NCBI GenBank assembly: GCA_030144725.1
Contig: JASKMD010000362.1
Span: 1-64,000, forward strand
Length of the DNA stretch: 64,000 nt
Reading direction: 5' to 3'
Source: Haematococcus lacustris
Lineage: Eukaryota > Chlorophyta > Chlorophyceae > Chlamydomonadales > Haematococcaceae
Shown: one piece after another, positions 38,268 through 47,267 of the stretch
How the letters are laid out: each line of letters opens with the position of its first letter
How positions within the stretch are numbered: position 1 is the stretch's first letter
Notes under the pieces: generated by a model
The model's input: the letters and a program-made list of their open reading frames with translations, nothing else
The model's database searches: none
Told to the model about the DNA's origin: nothing
Program-made: the position numbers and the translations under genes

Positions 38268-38986
38268 CCGCCCCGCCCCGCCCCGCCCCGCCCCGCCCCG
38301 CCCCGCCCCGCCCCGCCCCGCCCCGCCCCGCCCCGCCCCGCCCCGCCCCGCCCCGCCCCGCCCCGCCCCGCCCCGCCCCGCCCCGCCCCGCCCCGCCCCG
38401 CCCCGCCCCGCCCCGCCCCGCCCCGCCCCGCCCCGCCCCGCCCCGCCCCGCCCCGCCCCGCCCCGCCCCGCCCCGCCCCGCCCCGCCCCGCCCCGCCCCG
38501 CCCCGCCCCGCCCCGCCCCGCCCCGCCCCGCCCCGCCCCGCCCCGCCCCGCCCCGCCCCGCCCCGCCCCGCCCCGCCCCGCCCCGCCCCGCCCCGCCCCG
38601 CCCCGCCCCGCCCCGCCCCGCCCCGCCCCGCCCCGCCCCGCCCCGCCCCGCCCCGCCCCGCCCCGCCCCGCCCCGCCCCGCCCCGCCCCGCCCCGCCCCG
38701 CCCCGCCCCGCCCCGCCCCGCCCCGCCCCGCCCCGCCCCGCCCCGCCCCGCCCCGCCCCGCCCCGCCCCGCCCCGCCCCGCCCCGCCCCGCCCCGCCCCG
38801 CCCCGCCCCGCCCCGCCCCGCCCCGCCCCGCCCCGCCCCGCCCCGCCCCGCCCCGCCCCGCCCCGCCCCGCCCCGCCCCGCCCCGCCCCGCCCCGCCCCG
38901 CCCCGCCCCGCCCCGCCCCGCCCCGCCCCGCCCCGCCCCGCCCCGCCCCGCCCCGCCCCGCCCCGCCCCGCCCCGCCCCGCCCCGC
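38268..38986. repeat. CCCCG pentanucleotide satellite, about 144 units
   Basis: A virtually perfect 0.72-kb array. The minus-strand GRGGA ORFs of 255-280 residues are artefacts of the repeat. Expected to form G-quadruplexes/i-motifs. Confidence 0.98.
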
Positions 38987-39169
38987 CTGATGAATACCAC
39001 ATTGCAGCTTGGGGCGCCTGACTCATGGCCTAGAATCAGTCCCGGCCCCATGCCGTGACTCGTCCAAGATGGTGACACCAATGGCCTCTGTGCTGTAGGA
39101 AGAGTGTGCCAGGGCCTGGGCCAATGGGGGGAGGTTTGCTAGGTCCTGGACCAGCTAGAGCGGGCCAAG

Positions 39170-40562: not shown

Positions 40563-43500
40563 ATGAAGATGCGGCTGAGTGCTTCCGTACGTGCGACACG
40601 TCCAGCTCAGTGCCAGCCTCGGCCTGTCTTATGCACGGCTGCCTCTACGCGCCGGGGCGTCCTCATCGGGGGCGCAGGCATGGCGCTGCTGCCTGGTGCG
40701 ACACGATGCTTGCAGCGATTGGGCGCGACGCAAGCAACTATCGTCACATCGCCCCTTCCTGTGCTCAGGCAGTGCGGCTCTAGCTGATGAGCCAGCCTCC
40801 ATCTATCAGTTCTCCGCCATGATGAAAGGGGAGGAGATTTCCTTAGAAAAGTACCGCGGCCAGGTTCTGGTGGTGGTAAACGTGGCATCGGAATGACCCC
40901 TGCAGGCGAGTTGGCGATGCCCGCATGCACGACATTCCGAGCTAATGGAGCCAGCAAAATGATTGCAGTAGTGGTTGAGCAGCCCCCTCGTGCCTCACTA
41001 GGGCCTCCTTTCGAGCCGGACCAGTAGTGGCCACTAGCAGCATATACTAGTGACCAATACTGGCCCGACTCAAAGTGGTGTTACTGGGCTGTGTGGAGTA
41101 AACCCAGTGCACATGGACATGGTGCACGAGCGCCTACCACCTACACTATTGCCTGACCCGTTAGGGCTATTGTGTAGAGTTGGCATGAAAAAACATGCAC
41201 TGATTAACAGCTGATGACAGCTCATCAAAGGGGGGCACTCACTACTGTGCCTCAGCAGGCTGCTGCTGCTGCTGCTGCTCCTGGGCCTTGGGTGGCTTGT
41301 CTCGCAGCCGCTTGTAGCCCAGCCAGGGTACTCCTTGGCCTTGGCTGGCAGCGCTCCCTGGTCTGGCCAGAAGCACAGCTCCAGCGGTTGAGTATAGTGG
41401 TTGAGAATAGTGGTTGAGAAGCCACACGCAGGGGTGTTGCAGGGGTAGCTGTACCCCGACCTGACCAGGGTAGGGCAACTGTTGTCCGAGAAGTATGGAG
41501 TGTGATGTGCAAACGTATGCTGCGCAGAATGTGAACTACCCAGGCCTGAGGACGCTGTACGACAAGTACAAGGTGAGCACTGGTTCCAGGCAATGATCAC
41601 CAGCCTGGATTAACCGGGGAGTAGGTCTGCAGTCAGGTCGTCATGCGCAGTCGGGTCCCATGTGAACCCCTTAACATGCAAGTCGCCTCATGAGCATGGC
41701 ATCTAGCACGGGCTTTGTTTGCACTCCCGTCAGCATTCAATTACACCACCATCATCATGGCTTGGTAGGTGCTGATCACGGGCAGAAGCTGGTGAGCTGC
41801 AGGCATGCAGGCATGCCATGCACATGTGAAATACAGGCTGCTAGATTTGGCCTGGCATGTGACCTGATGCAGGCTGAGGGGTTCCAAACTATAGCTTTTC
41901 CCTGCAATCAATTCGGTGAGTTGAGGAGCAAGCAACAGCAGCAGCCACACTCCGTCAGCTGGAGCCACCTTGTGTGAGCTGTGTCAGCTGCAAAGAGGGA
42001 AGGCCTATTGAGCCTTACGCCCTGTCAGCTGGCCGCCTGTCAGCTGTCCTGTCAGCTGTCCTGTCAGCCGGCTACCCTGAGCCTGCCAGCAGGCTGCCTT
42101 ACACACAGCCAGCTAAGCAGAGGCAGGGCCCATGCAGGCCCGCTTGCATCATCATCAACATCACTGCGTTGCTGAAACACATACAGTGTGTGATGCCCTG
42201 CATACGTCAGCCTGACAGCAGGCTAGGGGCGTATTCAGGGCCATGACACCTACAGGCCGCACGCAGACCCCACCCCTGGCTCCAGGCACCCCTTGACCAG
42301 GCCCCAGTAGCTACAGGGATCAAACCCTGGGCAGAACAGATCCAGAGGTGCCCAGAAGCTTCTGCACAGGCCACAGTACAGCTGCGCCTGTTGAGCCACA
42401 AGACAGCTGCTGTGCCATGATGTGCCTCAAGGTGCCCAGCCCAGTGGTGCACAACAGCTGCTGTGCCTCAAGGTGCCCAGCCCAGCCCAGCCCAGCTCAG
42501 GGTGGGTGGCTGCGCTGCAGGCGGTCAGGCGCCAGGCACAGATGAGGAGGAGCGTGCCTGGGCCATCCGCAAGTTTGGCTTTGAGTTTGACGTGTACGAC
42601 AAGGTGCTGGTGAACGGGCCCAGCGCGCACCCGCTGTACCGCTTCCTCAAGGCGCAGCAGCCGCTGGCGGCGCCGGGTGCTGCTCAACCTGGGCGGCCTC
42701 AGGGCGATGTGGCCTGGAACTACGTGGGTCCACCTGCCATTGCTCTGGCTCCCCACCACCTTGATGCTGGCTGCATGCCTCCCCAGTGTCTCACACGAGT
42801 TCTCTCACACGAGTTGTCTCCCTGCTCTTTTCAAAAACTCCATGCTTTCATGTGTCCCACACCTGGAAAGGGCAGACAGGGACGGCTGCATACCTCCGCA
42901 CACCCATCGTTTCTCTCGTCGCTCACACTGATCTTTCACTTAGCTCTCACGCAGCTTTGAATAAACCCAGCTTTCATGCACCCATACCAGAAAAAACGGA
43001 GAGGAAAGTTTCCAATCAGCCAGGGGTGGGAGGCTGGAGCGGGAGGCCCCTCCTCCCGTACACCCTGCAGCAGTGTGTTGCCTAAGCTTTGTATGTCACA
43101 AGGCCACGGGCACAGCAACTCACACGCAGTCACACACTGGGGTGGTGGGTGGTTTGTCGGTCGCAGGAGAAGTTTTTGGTGGATCGCAGCGGTCAGGCGG
43201 TGAAGCGCTTCAAGAGTGCCCTAGACCCGTTGAGCTTCGAGGCGGACGTGCGGCTGCTGCTGGTGGGCGGGGCAGGGAGGGAGGGAGGGAGGGAGGGAGG
43301 GAGGGAGGGAGGGAGGCACAGTCACACATGTCCCCTAGGGCTGCCTGCCACACGGCTGCAGCGCTGCAGTGCTGATGGCAAGCTGTAAGCTCCAGCTCAC
43401 CCACAGCCGCCCTCACCACAACACTAGAAAGCCAGTCCCACTCTCTTGGCACGTGTGCTGTGGGTCAAGGTTTAAGTCACCCCCGCTTACTGGGGCATTT

Positions 43501-44039
43501 GCTGTGTGTCGAGCCACGTACACATCACCATAGCATTCACCTGGGTTGAAAGGGGTGCATTTGCTGTGGGTCATTTGGCGCATTTGCTGTGGGTCCAGCC
43601 ATGTACACATCATCATGGCATTCACCTGGGTTGAAAGGGGTGCTGACTGCTTGAAGTGGACTCTGATCATAGCTGGGTGCCCAGTCGCACCGGGACGGCT
43701 GCTGGCCACCACCCGCCACCCAGCTAAGCTGGCACACAACGCCACACACGGCCACATCATCCTTTCATGCACCTGGATGTGGTCTCCATCCTAGAAGTGG
43801 AGTCAAGCTGGCTGCTCAACCATACCAGGACGGCTGCTGTCCATCACCCAACAACCCAACCACCCAAAGCTGACTCACTGAACACCAGGTTGCAGGCAGG
43901 CCAGGTGACTAGGGTGTCTGCAGTCAGGTTGTGCCCTGCCCCACCACCCCTGCAGGCTGGCAAGGGCCCCCTGCCTGCCGAGTGCATCATGCACCCGGGC
44001 CGCAAGGTCTGCAACGTGGACAAGCTGCTGGCGGCATAG
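40563..44039 (+). CDS. Glutathione peroxidase, plastid/thylakoid-targeted, probable selenoprotein
   Basis: Seven exons: 40563-40695, 40769-40905, 41528-41572, 41873-41915, 42521-42723, 43167-43262, 43956-44039; 246 residues, phases consistent. Residues 1-50 look like a lumen-targeting presequence, with a basic/Ser-rich start, TRRGVLIGGAGMALLPG and A-L-A before DEPASIYQF. The GPX core follows: LEKYRGQVLVVVNVASE, then an in-frame TGA (codon 87), PLQNVNYPGLRTLYDKYK, AFPCNQFGGQAPG (catalytic Gln122), PLYRFLKAQQ and VAWNYEKFLVD (catalytic Trp185). Exon 2 must end in a GC donor (CAG/GCGAGT); this gives exactly the family spacing from the catalytic residue to N-Y. Read as Sec, the TGA is the peroxidatic residue; read as stop, the gene is dead. 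The resolving Cys of plant enzymes is absent, as in Sec types. It reduces hydroperoxides. Intron 2 contains a Fanzor-like insertion. Confidence 0.8.
40894..40896 (+). other. In-frame TGA at the catalytic position of glutathione peroxidase
   Basis: This codon sits exactly where the family has Cys or Sec (N-V-A-S-x-C/U), with seven residues to the conserved Tyr as usual. Green algae such as Chlamydomonas do make Sec-containing GPX. A SECIS element in the 3' untranslated region was not proved. Confidence 0.65.
40981..41389 (-). mobile_element. 5'-truncated Fanzor-like element, copy C, in GPX intron 2
   Basis: Minus strand. A tail of about 50 codons (41389-41242) with LELCFWPDQ, a one-base deletion near 41322 that breaks the frame, and the K-R-L-R-D-K-P-P-K end. 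The 3' module follows, with its hairpin at 41183-41198. TAGTGGTTGAG lies on both sides (40969-40979 and, in two imperfect copies, 41395-41418), consistent with a target duplication in a short repeat. It is antisense to the host gene. Confidence 0.6.
42940..43955. repeat. GPX introns 5-6: GGGA run and tandem 60-bp unit
   Basis: 43267-43316 is a GGGA run directly after exon 6. 43440-43650 holds about three imperfect copies of a unit with CATTCACCTGGGTTGAAAGG. No coding sequence apart from exon 6. Confidence 0.6.
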
Positions 44040-44904
44040 CCAGGGGAGGGGGAGTCCCCTCGCCCTCCTACAGGAGGGGCTCCTCCCCCTCCACCCCTTC
44101 CTGAGGAGAGGTCCCCTCCCCTCCCTCTCCTAAGGAGCAGGAGAGGGAGAGGACTCCTGTTGGTTCTGCTGGTCCTGCAAGGCTGGGGCAGCGATGAGGC
44201 CTGCCCTCTACCAGTACCATGAAATGCCCGCATAGCCGGGAGAGGGAGGGTGGGAGAGGGAAGGGGAGGGGGAGTCCCCTCCTGTGGGCCCTGCTGGGCC
44301 ATTGAGGCTGCTGGTCCTGTCAGGCCGGGCCGGGATGACACCTGCCCTCCAGCAGTGGCTGGTATCTTGAAGTGGGCTCGATGGTGGTACTGTATTAGCG
44401 GAGTGGGTTACTAAAAGTTGCCGTATTGGCTGCGGTCGCATCCCGCCTGCGTGACTATGACGGCCACTGTCGCACATCACGCATCGTGGTGGACAGTGGC
44501 CCGACGACTGCGGCAGCTGGGCTGGGTGTCGCGTCCTCGTTATCCATGCACAGCTTCAGTTGCCATGCAGGAGGGCATGCGACACGAGTCAATACCCACC
44601 ATATGGCGCCCACCATGCGCACAACTTGATTGTCTTAACTAGCCCGTTGGAGCTGCCATGGCGGGGTATGTTAAAAACTGAACCCCACAACCGTTCCTGG
44701 TCACCCCTCCGACTCCTCCGGCCCCGATCCTTAACCCTAGCTTGAGACGTGAAGGCTCTGGGCCTACATACAGCTGCTTGTGCATTCCGGCCCAGACCTG
44801 ACCCAGATTCCGACCCAGACAGGCACACCTCCCTCTACTTATCAAACTCCCTCAAGGGAGGGGGCGTGGGCGGTTGAATAGGAGTTGCGGTCGGGCGGTC
44901 GGGC
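44040..44904. other. GPX 3' flank; G-rich duplicated block; no gene
   Basis: GGGGAGGGGGAGTCCCCTC occurs at about 44042-44060 and 44259-44278 within a local duplication. The flank contains ATGA motifs near 44192 and 44334 that could belong to a SECIS stem, but I could not fold a convincing one. Confidence 0.4.
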
Positions 44905-45310
44905 CCCAACTAACAAAAATGGACAGGGAATGATGGGAAACCGACCCCTAGTAATCAAAATGACGCCGTGTCTCAGCCACGTGGTTTCTATTTCTGTTTC
45001 GCACATCACTGGATAGAGGACTCCGTCAGCTATGCGGTGCAACATGTATCAATAAATACTGTGCACTGTGCTGAGTGCGTTGGCGGCTCAAATCTTTACC
45101 ATTTAAATCATGCTTGTAATGCTCATGCGGGCCTCGCCGCGATCGACCGCCGCGACCGACGTGGCCCAGCAGAATCTGCACACAGTGCGGAACAGTCGCC
45201 GCAGTAAAATCGATTCACATGGCACGCTGAACCGATGTATCCGCGCCACTCCACACACGCACATAAATTCAGGCGTTCCCAACATGGGGTTGGTAATCTT
45301 CATGCAACTG
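44905..45310. repeat. Repeat R1, second copy, with inverted right end
   Basis: 44905-45262 matches 21606-21922 followed directly by 25989-26030, showing the empty site of the copia insertion. Next to it, 45263-45310 matches the R1 right end in inverted orientation (CCCAACATGGGGTTGGTAAT), so the copy is rearranged and lacks the G-rich middle. Confidence 0.75.
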
Positions 45311-45677
45311 CAGCCCATATACTCCATCATTTGATGTAACGTTTGCTGCGTCTGCTGCAATGCGATAACGCGCGTTTAATGTAAGACTGGAATTGCCATC
45401 GGAGTCATTCGATGCGGGCAGCCACATGTGACCCCGGATGTGTCCCAATCGCAGACCGTGGTTAGCTATACTGGTAAGCTACGTCCTTGGCTACCCGTTA
45501 GCGATGCACGACATGTCGGTGGCGCACACCACCGAAGTCCGGCAAACATGGCTGCGCGAGCTTCCTGATGGTGCAGGCCGCTTGGCGAGGATGTGAAGAA
45601 ACTCGAATTCGTGTGCGACATCGCTGTATCGCTGTAATGGTGGGCGGCACAGTAGGGACTAGACACCCCCTCCAGCT
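45311..45677. other. No gene recognised
   Basis: Short ORFs only; the first 60 bp may still belong to the inverted R1 end. Confidence 0.4.
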
Positions 45678-47267
45678 ATGACCCGCTATATGTTTTCAAC
45701 CATTGAACAACAGCCTGGCCTCACACGAATCTTTTGTAGCATACTCATCAACGCGTCCATGGCACCATGCAACTCAATTATTGGGTTTGTATGTGACAAG
45801 ATGGACCGCTTACAAGGTACACATGCTGATGGCTACAGGTGCATGAGGAGCCGACTGAGCTTGGCTGACCACTCCGCCACATGGCCACCACCAACACACC
45901 TTAACCCACCACCTCCCAACCTCGTATACCCCGCCCAGCTCCCAGTAGCCCCTCATCCCAGCCTGCCATCAGCCTCCTCCCCCCTAACCCTCCAGTGCGT
46001 CCTCCCCAACCCACACCGGCCAGGCAAGACATCCACAGTTGGGCGTGAATGCCACATCGTGTCCACCTACATGCGGCGCAAGACCCTTGGTAAGATGCAA
46101 AGGGGAAGGGGCAGGGTGGCGTGGGTGGGAAGGGGCCGGGAGAGAGTGGAAGGGGGTGGAAGGGAGTGGTAGGGGGTGGGAGGGGGGGGCTGAGGGGGGG
46201 GCTCAGGGGGGGCTGAGGCTGGGAATAACCGCATGTTTTTGCTACCTGCTTTCAGACCAACTATTGCGCGCAAAGGCAATACACCCGCAATTTGATGGGT
46301 GCACATGCGATCGCCATGGCAAGGTGCTCGTATTGCGAGTGACAGCAGCAGTCACCCCGCAGCACCTGACAGAGGGATGGGAGCAGAGGCCCGGTGGTGC
46401 AGTTGGGGCTGGGGCTGGGGCTGGGGCTGGGGCTGCAGCTGGGGCAGCGGCAGGGGCAGCGGCAGGGGCTGGGGCTGGGGCTGGGGCTGGGGCAGCAGCT
46501 GGGGCAGCAGCTGGGGCAGCAGCTGGGGCTGGGGCTGGGGCTGGGGCAGCAGCTGGGGCAGCGGCAGGGGCTGGGGCTGGGGCTGGGGCTGGGACAGCAG
46601 CTGGGGCAGCGGCTGGGGCTGGGGCTGGGGCTGGGGAAGCAGCTGGGGCAGCAGCTGGGGCAGCAGCTGGGGTTGGGGCTGAGGCTGCAGCTGGGGCAGG
46701 CCGACTCACCACTCAAGTCACCGATGTTTTGGCTATCATCCCCTTGCCTATTGGCACGGCAGAAGCTCATGTCCAGGTCATAATGCAGGAGCTGCTCCTC
46801 CACGGCCTCGACACTGCCTGCATCGCCAGCATCACAGCAGACAGTGCAGCTGTGAACATGGGTGAATATGGTGGTGTTGTCACCCTCTCCTCCTGCAGAG
46901 CAAGGGGCAGGCTGGTTGCATTCGGGCGCAACCCTGCTATAGCCACGGCATACACAACACCCTGCTGGCTGGGATAGCTGCATTGGGTGGTGACATCCGC
47001 CCAGCCATTGAATCCATTGCCAGCTTGCTGGCCCAGTATTGGGTGCCGCTCGGCATGGGAGCATGGGGCGCCAAGCCCCAAGTGCCGTGTGACACCCGCT
47101 GGGCCAGCTACATCAGCTCAACGGTGTCCATGCTGCGCGTCTGGGCGCATGCGAGAGATGCCGTGTCACAGCTGCTTGAGGGGCAGAAGGATCGGTCTCC
47201 ACCATGGGCTGTCACCCTTAGCCAGCTGCTCCAGGACCTGCTCCAGGAGCTGCTCCAGGACCCTTAG
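45678..47267 (+). pseudogene. hAT-like transposase remnant with expanded Ala/Gly array
   Basis: Successive plus-strand segments: TSTVGRECHIVSTYMRRKTL (to about 46085); LLRAKAIHPQFDGCTCD and VLVLRVTAAVTPQHLTEGW (46260-46385); an AGAGA repeat from the GGGGCT array; VTDVLAIIPLPIGTAEAHVQ and SITADSAAVNMG (to about 46870); a frame change; then PCYSHGIHNTLLAGIAALGG and PCDTRWASYISSTVSML (46930-47140). D-S-A-x-x-N, C-x2-H-x2-H and T-R-W are the hAT core motifs also seen at 34.6-35.4 kb. Stops and shifts make it non-functional unless spliced. No inverted ends were identified. Confidence 0.6.
46399..46700. repeat. GGGGCT/GGGGCAGCA satellite inside the transposase remnant
   Basis: Six-base GGGGCT units mixed with GGGGCAGC(A/G) units. 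The length keeps the frame open as Gly-Ala repeats. Confidence 0.9.

What the first reader, a model, noticed from the sequence alone, without database searches (positions are those of the whole stretch)
40769..41572. Probable selenocysteine codon in a plastid-type glutathione peroxidase
A TGA lies exactly at the catalytic position after N-V-A-S-E, and with a GC-AG intron the downstream residues keep family spacing (seven residues to Tyr). Catalytic Gln122 and Trp185 are intact and the resolving Cys is absent. Sec GPX exists in Chlamydomonas, but the residue after Sec is Pro instead of the usual Gly, and the enzyme carries a thylakoid-type presequence.
Basis: partly seen in the sequence, partly recalled or inferred. 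Interest (0 to 1): 0.8.

Follow-up and report, generated by a model that had tools for sequence, protein, structure and literature searches.

The report
Selenium enzyme in a green alga
An internal 'stop' codon in this green-alga gene almost certainly codes for selenocysteine in a peroxide-removing enzyme that appears to be sent inside the photosynthetic membranes; it is the counterpart of a selenium enzyme already known in Chlamydomonas.

Summary
The window is Haematococcus lacustris DNA with a seven-exon glutathione peroxidase (GPX) gene; an in-frame TGA (40894-40896) sits at the catalytic position, three codons before a GC-AG intron.

Of the 120 best relatives listed, 81 belong to one algal clade: none shows Cys at the site, 2 read W-P-L, and 79 start after it or lack it. 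In a second search, 52 of 67 hits stop exactly after N-[VI]-A-S-E. The Chlamydomonas relative, GPX2, is a published selenoprotein. The genome has tRNA-Sec (UCA) and the Sec synthase family.

The weak point is the SECIS. Nothing matched Rfam, and AA/CC hairpins occur only at background rate. A hairpin at 44457-44505 has green-algal type II geometry but a GCA bulge instead of AA. No transcript or protein evidence for this species was available.

Verdict: a real selenoprotein gene, new member of a known kind. Sec-Pro, a twin-Arg presequence and a C-terminal C-x8-C pair mark the clade.

The parts
40563..40695 (+). exon 1: presequence with twin Arg (TRRGVLIGG)
   Evidence: frame and GT donor; own-genome match
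40769..40905 (+). exon 2: end of presequence (ALA|D) and N-terminal GPX part up to Sec-Pro-Leu-Gln
   Evidence: own-genome match with 1 TGA inside
40894..40896 (+). TGA, Sec codon 87
   Evidence: stop at this codon in relatives
40906..41527 (+). intron 2, GC-AG (gcgagt...gcgcag)
   Evidence: same position with GT donor inferred in P0121
41528..41572 (+). exon 3 (N-V-N-Y...)
41873..41915 (+). exon 4 (F-P-C-N-Q-F)
42521..42723 (+). exon 5, with Gln122 at its start (G-Q-A-P-G) and Trp185, Asn186, Tyr187 at its end
43167..43262 (+). exon 6
43956..44039 (+). exon 7: C-x8-C tail (Cys229, Cys238) and stop TAG at 44037-44039
44457..44505 (+). SECIS candidate: AUGA, spacer C, 10-bp helix, GCA bulge, 7-bp mini-stem, CGAC; 418 nt after the stop codon
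   Evidence: bulge lacks AA
45115..45119 (+). first TGTAA after the stop; a second at 45335. TGTAA as the chlorophyte poly(A) signal is recalled

Best explanation
This is the Haematococcus lacustris counterpart of Chlamydomonas GPX2, a selenocysteine glutathione peroxidase. The ribosome reads the TGA at 40894 as Sec with tRNA-Sec(UCA), directed by a SECIS in the 3' UTR, most likely the hairpin at 44457-44505 (about 0.6). The twin-Arg presequence takes the protein into the plastid and across the thylakoid membrane to the lumen, where the selenolate, with Gln122, Trp185 and Asn186, reduces hydroperoxides. Shown here: the gene, the TGA, the recurrence of a stop at this codon in relatives, tRNA-Sec, the Sec synthase family and the presequence motif. 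Inferred: Sec insertion itself, which hairpin is the SECIS, lumenal location, substrate and reductant.
For: Intact seven-exon frame with a single internal stop at the catalytic codon. 0 of 81 clade members with Cys there, against 39 of the 120 listed hits that read N-x-x-S-x-C-G and lie outside the clade. 52 of 67 N-terminal hits end at this codon. GPX2 of Chlamydomonas is a published selenoprotein and its transcript was amplified (PMC9404770, PMC3095285, PMC7230881, passages). tRNA-Sec: 5 loci over the Rfam cut-off, ARAGORN reads anticodon TCA in 4 of the 5. Sec synthase family exons at three places. The other GPX genes read have Cys. Twin Arg in 27 of 30 clade N-termini of 85 or more residues (several of these are near-identical to one another).
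Against: No Rfam SECIS at E up to 10; strict AA/CC scan found none in 43959-46000. The candidate's bulge is GCA, three unpaired bases where the published rule asks for AA or CC; its 95-nt fold is not unusually stable (z -0.52). With any apical letters a loose grammar finds six 5' quartets in the UTR, not one. PSTK, eEFSec and SBP2 not tested. No transcript or peptide. The stops in most relatives are seen as ORF ends, not as TGA. The gene is found at one place, on a 64,656-base contig.
Confidence: 0.9

Rival explanations
1. The gene makes a Cys enzyme: an exon starting at 41501 supplies TGT and the TGA is spliced out.
For: An AG precedes TGT at 41501, and several donors upstream of the TGA keep the frame when joined to it.
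Against: Every in-frame join that avoids the TGA loses V-A-S-E or more, giving for instance V-N-C-D-V-Q-T-Y-A-A-Q-N-V-N-Y, with Cys out of spacing. P0002 and P0006 run A-S-E-W-P-L without any Cys exon, and none of 81 clade members shows Cys.
Confidence: 0.01
2. TGA is read as Trp or another residue, or simply ends a short protein.
For: P0002 and P0006 carry W at the site.
Against: The W may only reflect a gene finder using a code with TGA as Trp; P0002 also has a W in a tail beyond the usual C-terminus, which fits that (inference; the DNA could not be fetched). Trp at the catalytic position would leave no selenol or thiol. Sequence downstream of the TGA is conserved, with clade-wide Gln, Trp and Asn. 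tRNA-Sec is present.
Confidence: 0.05
3. A dead gene with a nonsense mutation.
For: One in-frame stop; a single place in the genome, on a small contig.
Against: Only one stop in 246 codons, splice sites intact, and the stop recurs in relatives. Deposited H. lacustris proteins P0001 and P0130 agree with it: P0001 has the TGA by its other-frame M-T-P-A, and P0130 ends at the codon.
Confidence: 0.02
4. Sec is inserted, but the SECIS is not the 44457 hairpin; it lies elsewhere in or beyond the 3' UTR, or in a spliced UTR.
For: The candidate lacks AA. Under a loose grammar AA/CC-type matches lie at 44194, 47593, 48597, 48792 and 49348. PMC6627142 (passage) reports predicted algal selenoproteins without a predicted SECIS.
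Against: Such loose matches occur at the window's background rate, 0.47 per 1.4 kb over 45 pieces; the 44457 geometry is the only hit on both strands of the window.
Confidence: 0.37

Closest known systems
Chlamydomonas reinhardtii GPX2 (CrGPxB, Cre08.g358525), Sec glutathione peroxidase
   Same: P0007 (CHLRE_08g358525) aligns along the mature protein, with twin Arg, Q-A-P-G, W-N-Y and C-x8-C. PMC9404770 names this gene Sec GPX2; the CrGPxB primers of PMC3095285 encode DSIYQF and DIEWNY, both in P0007 (translated by hand).
   Different: 59% identity over 75% of the query. Its residue after Sec could not be checked: the deposited model lacks that part and the primary papers are not held.
Chlamydomonas GPX1 (CrGPxA) and human GPX4, Sec glutathione peroxidases
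   Same: Sec enzymes of the same fold; the model of relative P0002 matches GPX4 structures.
   Different: Gly follows Sec in CrGPxA (PMC3095285 passage); here Pro. The C-x8-C tail is absent from the 38 non-clade proteins counted.
Plant Cys-type GPX (poplar GPX5, 2p5q)
   Same: Fold and spacing of seven residues from catalytic residue to Tyr.
   Different: Cys-Gly at the site and a Cys in the VCTRF stretch; both absent here.
Green-algal type II SECIS (Ostreococcus, Chlamydomonas)
   Same: NTGA quartet, 11 nt to the bulge, 28 nt to GA, long mini-stem, as in the rule and description of PMC2375036 (passages).
   Different: Bulge GCA instead of AA or CC.

Membership tests
Glutathione peroxidase family (PF00255) | Profile match over the curated cut-off | tested here: met
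   106.9 bits, cut-off 27 (Cys typed at the TGA)
Glutathione peroxidase family (PF00255) | Catalytic Cys/Sec position with Gln, Trp, Asn | tested here: met
   TGA at codon 87, Gln122, Trp185, Asn186; the same place as the catalytic Cys of poplar GPX5 by alignment of P0002. That these four form the active site is recalled.
Eukaryotic selenoprotein gene | In-frame TGA at a conserved redox position | tested here: met
Eukaryotic selenoprotein gene | SECIS in the 3' UTR | tested here: inconclusive
   No Rfam or strict AA/CC match; candidate at 44457-44505 without AA
Eukaryotic selenoprotein gene | tRNA-Sec with anticodon UCA in the genome | tested here: met
   5 loci over cut-off, TCA read in 4 of 5
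Eukaryotic selenoprotein gene | Sec synthase (SepSecS) in the genome | tested here: met
   PF05889 exons over cut-off, three places
Eukaryotic selenoprotein gene | PSTK, eEFSec, SBP2, SPS in the genome | not tested
   not searched
Eukaryotic selenoprotein gene | Selenium in the protein | not testable with these tools
   needs 75Se or mass spectrometry
Chlamydomonas GPX2-type clade | Q-A-P-G, C-x8-C tail, twin-Arg presequence, stop at the catalytic codon | tested here: met
   the clade is defined here by these motifs, no tree was built
Thylakoid-lumen protein | Twin-Arg lumenal presequence with A-x-A cleavage site | tested here: met
   TRRGVLIGG ... ALA|D; motif reading, no predictor was run
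Thylakoid-lumen protein | Found in the lumen | not testable with these tools
   presequence only

The most novel reading that the evidence does not exclude
Green algae keep a lumen-dedicated seleno-GPX subfamily whose Sec-Pro site has not been replaced by Cys in any member seen. With no resolving Cys in the usual place, its selenenic acid is resolved by the conserved C-terminal C-x8-C pair instead of glutathione, and a SECIS without the AA bulge drives its synthesis.
Probability: 0.2. Interest if true: 0.65.

Novelty: new member of a known kind. Interest (0 to 1): 0.45.

Why it matters
Deposited proteins for this gene are cut or spliced wrongly at the Sec codon in several named green algae; in H. 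lacustris, P0001 is read in another frame and named thioredoxin-like, and P0130 has 47 residues ending at the codon. A selenoenzyme apparently sent to the thylakoid lumen, with no Cys replacement among the 81 listed clade members, raises a testable question: why this site needs selenium, and what reduces it in the lumen.

Tried and rejected
Rfam SECIS search: none at E up to 10. Strict AA/CC hairpin scan: none in 43959-46000. A looser scan gave 3 overlapping hits, all from one ATGA at 44194, and 18 of 46 same-length pieces of the window scored as well or better (fraction 0.391); a PatScan-like grammar gave the same site once; rejected. Cys exon at 41501: rejected. DNA of relatives: viral contigs, none; prokaryote contigs, four bacterial GPXs only. 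SelM/Sep15 as a source of another Haematococcus SECIS: no match, but no control genome rang either, so uninformative. SelT/SelW (PF10262), SelU-type (PF13911) and MsrA (PF01625) searches did not complete. A TGA listed inside Sec synthase exons was looked for once, without result. In one search a looser rule counted 82 clade members instead of 81; the C-x8-C counts (51 of 55 and 0 of 38) come from that rule. One search's rule left out P0074 and P0076, so its counts are for 79 of the 81. The AlphaFold model gave no coordinates, so the distance from the site to the C-terminal Cys pair was not measured.

Full report
What is there. The window lies on a 64,656-base contig of a 308-Mb genome. The deposited Haematococcus lacustris protein P0001 matches the query at 100% over 61% of its length, and P0130, also H. 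lacustris, matches the N-terminal half at 89% over 55%. The gene has seven exons, 40563-44039. Five introns are GT-AG; intron 2 is GC-AG (CAG|GCGAGT). The frame is 246 codons plus TAG, interrupted only by TGA at codon 87, in N-V-A-S-E-TGA-P-L-Q|N-V-N-Y. Tyr is seven residues on, as in poplar GPX5. Gln122, Trp185 and Asn186 are present.

Is the TGA a Sec codon? First, the relatives. The first search scored 8,000 candidates, found 6,081 significant proteins and listed 120. The 120 split: 39 read N-x-x-S-x-C-G, and 81 form a green-algal clade marked by Q-[AS]-P. None of the 81 shows a Cys at the site. Two, P0002 and P0006, read through as A-S-E-W-P-L. In one search, 79 of the 81 were sorted: 38 begin within six residues of the conserved Tyr, 28 begin later or lack the Tyr region, and 13 have residues upstream of it. 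The 13 include the two W readers; the other 11 skip or replace the stretch around the site, among them models from Chlamydomonas, Tetradesmus, Chlorella, Micractinium, Raphidocelis, Myrmecia, Symbiochloris and Asterochloris (Asterochloris is my reading of the tag Astpho2). Of the two not sorted, P0076 begins at M-N-Y-P and P0074 lacks the stretch.

Second, the mirror search. An alignment of nine N-terminal pieces, three of which ended in A-S-E, found 67 proteins. Of these, 53 end exactly at the codon: 52 with N-[VI]-A-S-E, having 40 distinct last-40 stretches, and one fish GPX4 (P0177; that fish GPX4 is a Sec enzyme is recalled). The other 14 are 10 other GPXs that read on, 9 of them with Cys-Gly, and 4 algal ORFs that leave the frame or end before the motif (P0121, P0123, P0124, P0126). 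These ends are stop codons, not proven TGA in each. TGA is read in the window. It also follows in P0001, whose other-frame M-T-P-A needs ATGACNCCNGCN, and in P0121 by the same argument; P0121 then back-translates to a sequence consistent with CCC CTG CAG|GTGAG, an intron at the same place with a GT donor (inference).

Third, a characterised relative. PMC9404770 (passages) names Cre08.g358525 as Sec GPX2. PMC3095285 (passages) calls CrGPxB (GPx2) a selenoprotein and confirmed its transcript by RT-PCR; its primers encode DSIYQF and DIEWNY (translated by hand), both in P0007, which NCBI names CHLRE_08g358525. PMC7230881 (passages) also treats GPX2 as a selenium enzyme. Two primary papers are not held. 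PMC7539508 and PMC6627142 (passages) report Sec GPX widely in algae; the word Haematococcus does not occur in either text.

Fourth, the machinery. Five tRNA-Sec loci pass Rfam's cut-off and ARAGORN reads anticodon TCA in four of them. Sec synthase family exons lie at three places. PSTK, eEFSec and SBP2 were not tested. In the whole genome, within a capped search, this GPX type was found only on C315. The other GPX genes lie on C22, C420 and C90, three places each; of these nine, four were read at the site, and all four have Cys (two on C22, one on C420, one on C90).

SECIS. No Rfam SECIS reached E 10, a strict AA/CC scan found none, and looser AA/CC hairpins occur only at background rate. The hairpin at 44457-44505 has AUGA, a spacer base, a 10-bp helix, a GCA bulge, a 7-bp mini-stem and CGAC. 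[quoted passage not shown] By a pattern written after seeing it, it is the only hit on both strands of the window; the same pattern gave none in 60 random 64-kb replicas and none in 2,000 replicas of the UTR's length, none in 100,795 other bases of this genome and none in four bacterial loci. Random replicas do not model natural inverted repeats. A simpler pattern (quartet, nine or more pairs, GA) gave 2 places on the + strand, none on the other, and 0.8 per strand in ten replicas. With any apical letters the loose grammar finds six 5' quartets in the UTR. The 95-nt fold is no more stable than its shuffles (z -0.52; 55 of 200 as stable). I put it at about 0.6 as the true SECIS.

How it works. 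The presequence has twin Arg, a hydrophobic stretch and A-L-A|D. Twin Arg, two residues and a hydrophobic residue stand in 27 of 30 clade N-termini of 85 or more residues that end at the codon; several of these are near-identical, so they are not 30 independent cases. This points to Tat transport into the lumen (inference; no predictor was run). The AlphaFold model of relative P0002, with W at the site (pLDDT 85.5, pTM 0.83, 37 sequences), matches GPX structures. The C-terminal C-x8-C pair is in 51 of 55 clade tails long enough to judge and in 0 of 38 others. Whether it resolves the oxidised Sec is open.

Novelty. Searches of the held library: 'selenoprotein, twin-arginine, thylakoid, alga' gave no paper. 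'Selenoprotein, thylakoid lumen' gave 8; passages of two were read and described no lumenal selenoprotein. 'Selenoprotein, Haematococcus' gave 39, of which 15 listed entries were seen. The gene is a new member of a known kind. Sec-Pro and the C-x8-C tail were not described in the passages I saw, but the primary Chlamydomonas papers could not be checked.

Noticed in passing
window 38268-38987: A perfect (CCGCC)n array of 144 copies, 720 bases at 100% match.
   Followed up: no
window 43274-43316: AGGG tandem array of 10.8 copies, just inside intron 6.
   Followed up: no
G000: C22, C420, C90 against C315: Other GPX genes and the Sec synthase family lie at three places on one contig each, as if copies or haplotypes were joined, while the Sec-GPX was found once, on a small contig.
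   Followed up: no
G000:C420:5559921-5560088, 7939079-7939243, 5937321-5937482: The search lists one TGA inside a Sec synthase family match at all three places; one look at nearby loci did not find it, and an exon edge read into an intron is likely.
   Followed up: partly
P0001 and P0130 (deposited H. lacustris proteins): P0001 reads the Sec exon in another frame and is named thioredoxin-like; P0130 has 47 residues and ends at the Sec codon.
   Followed up: partly
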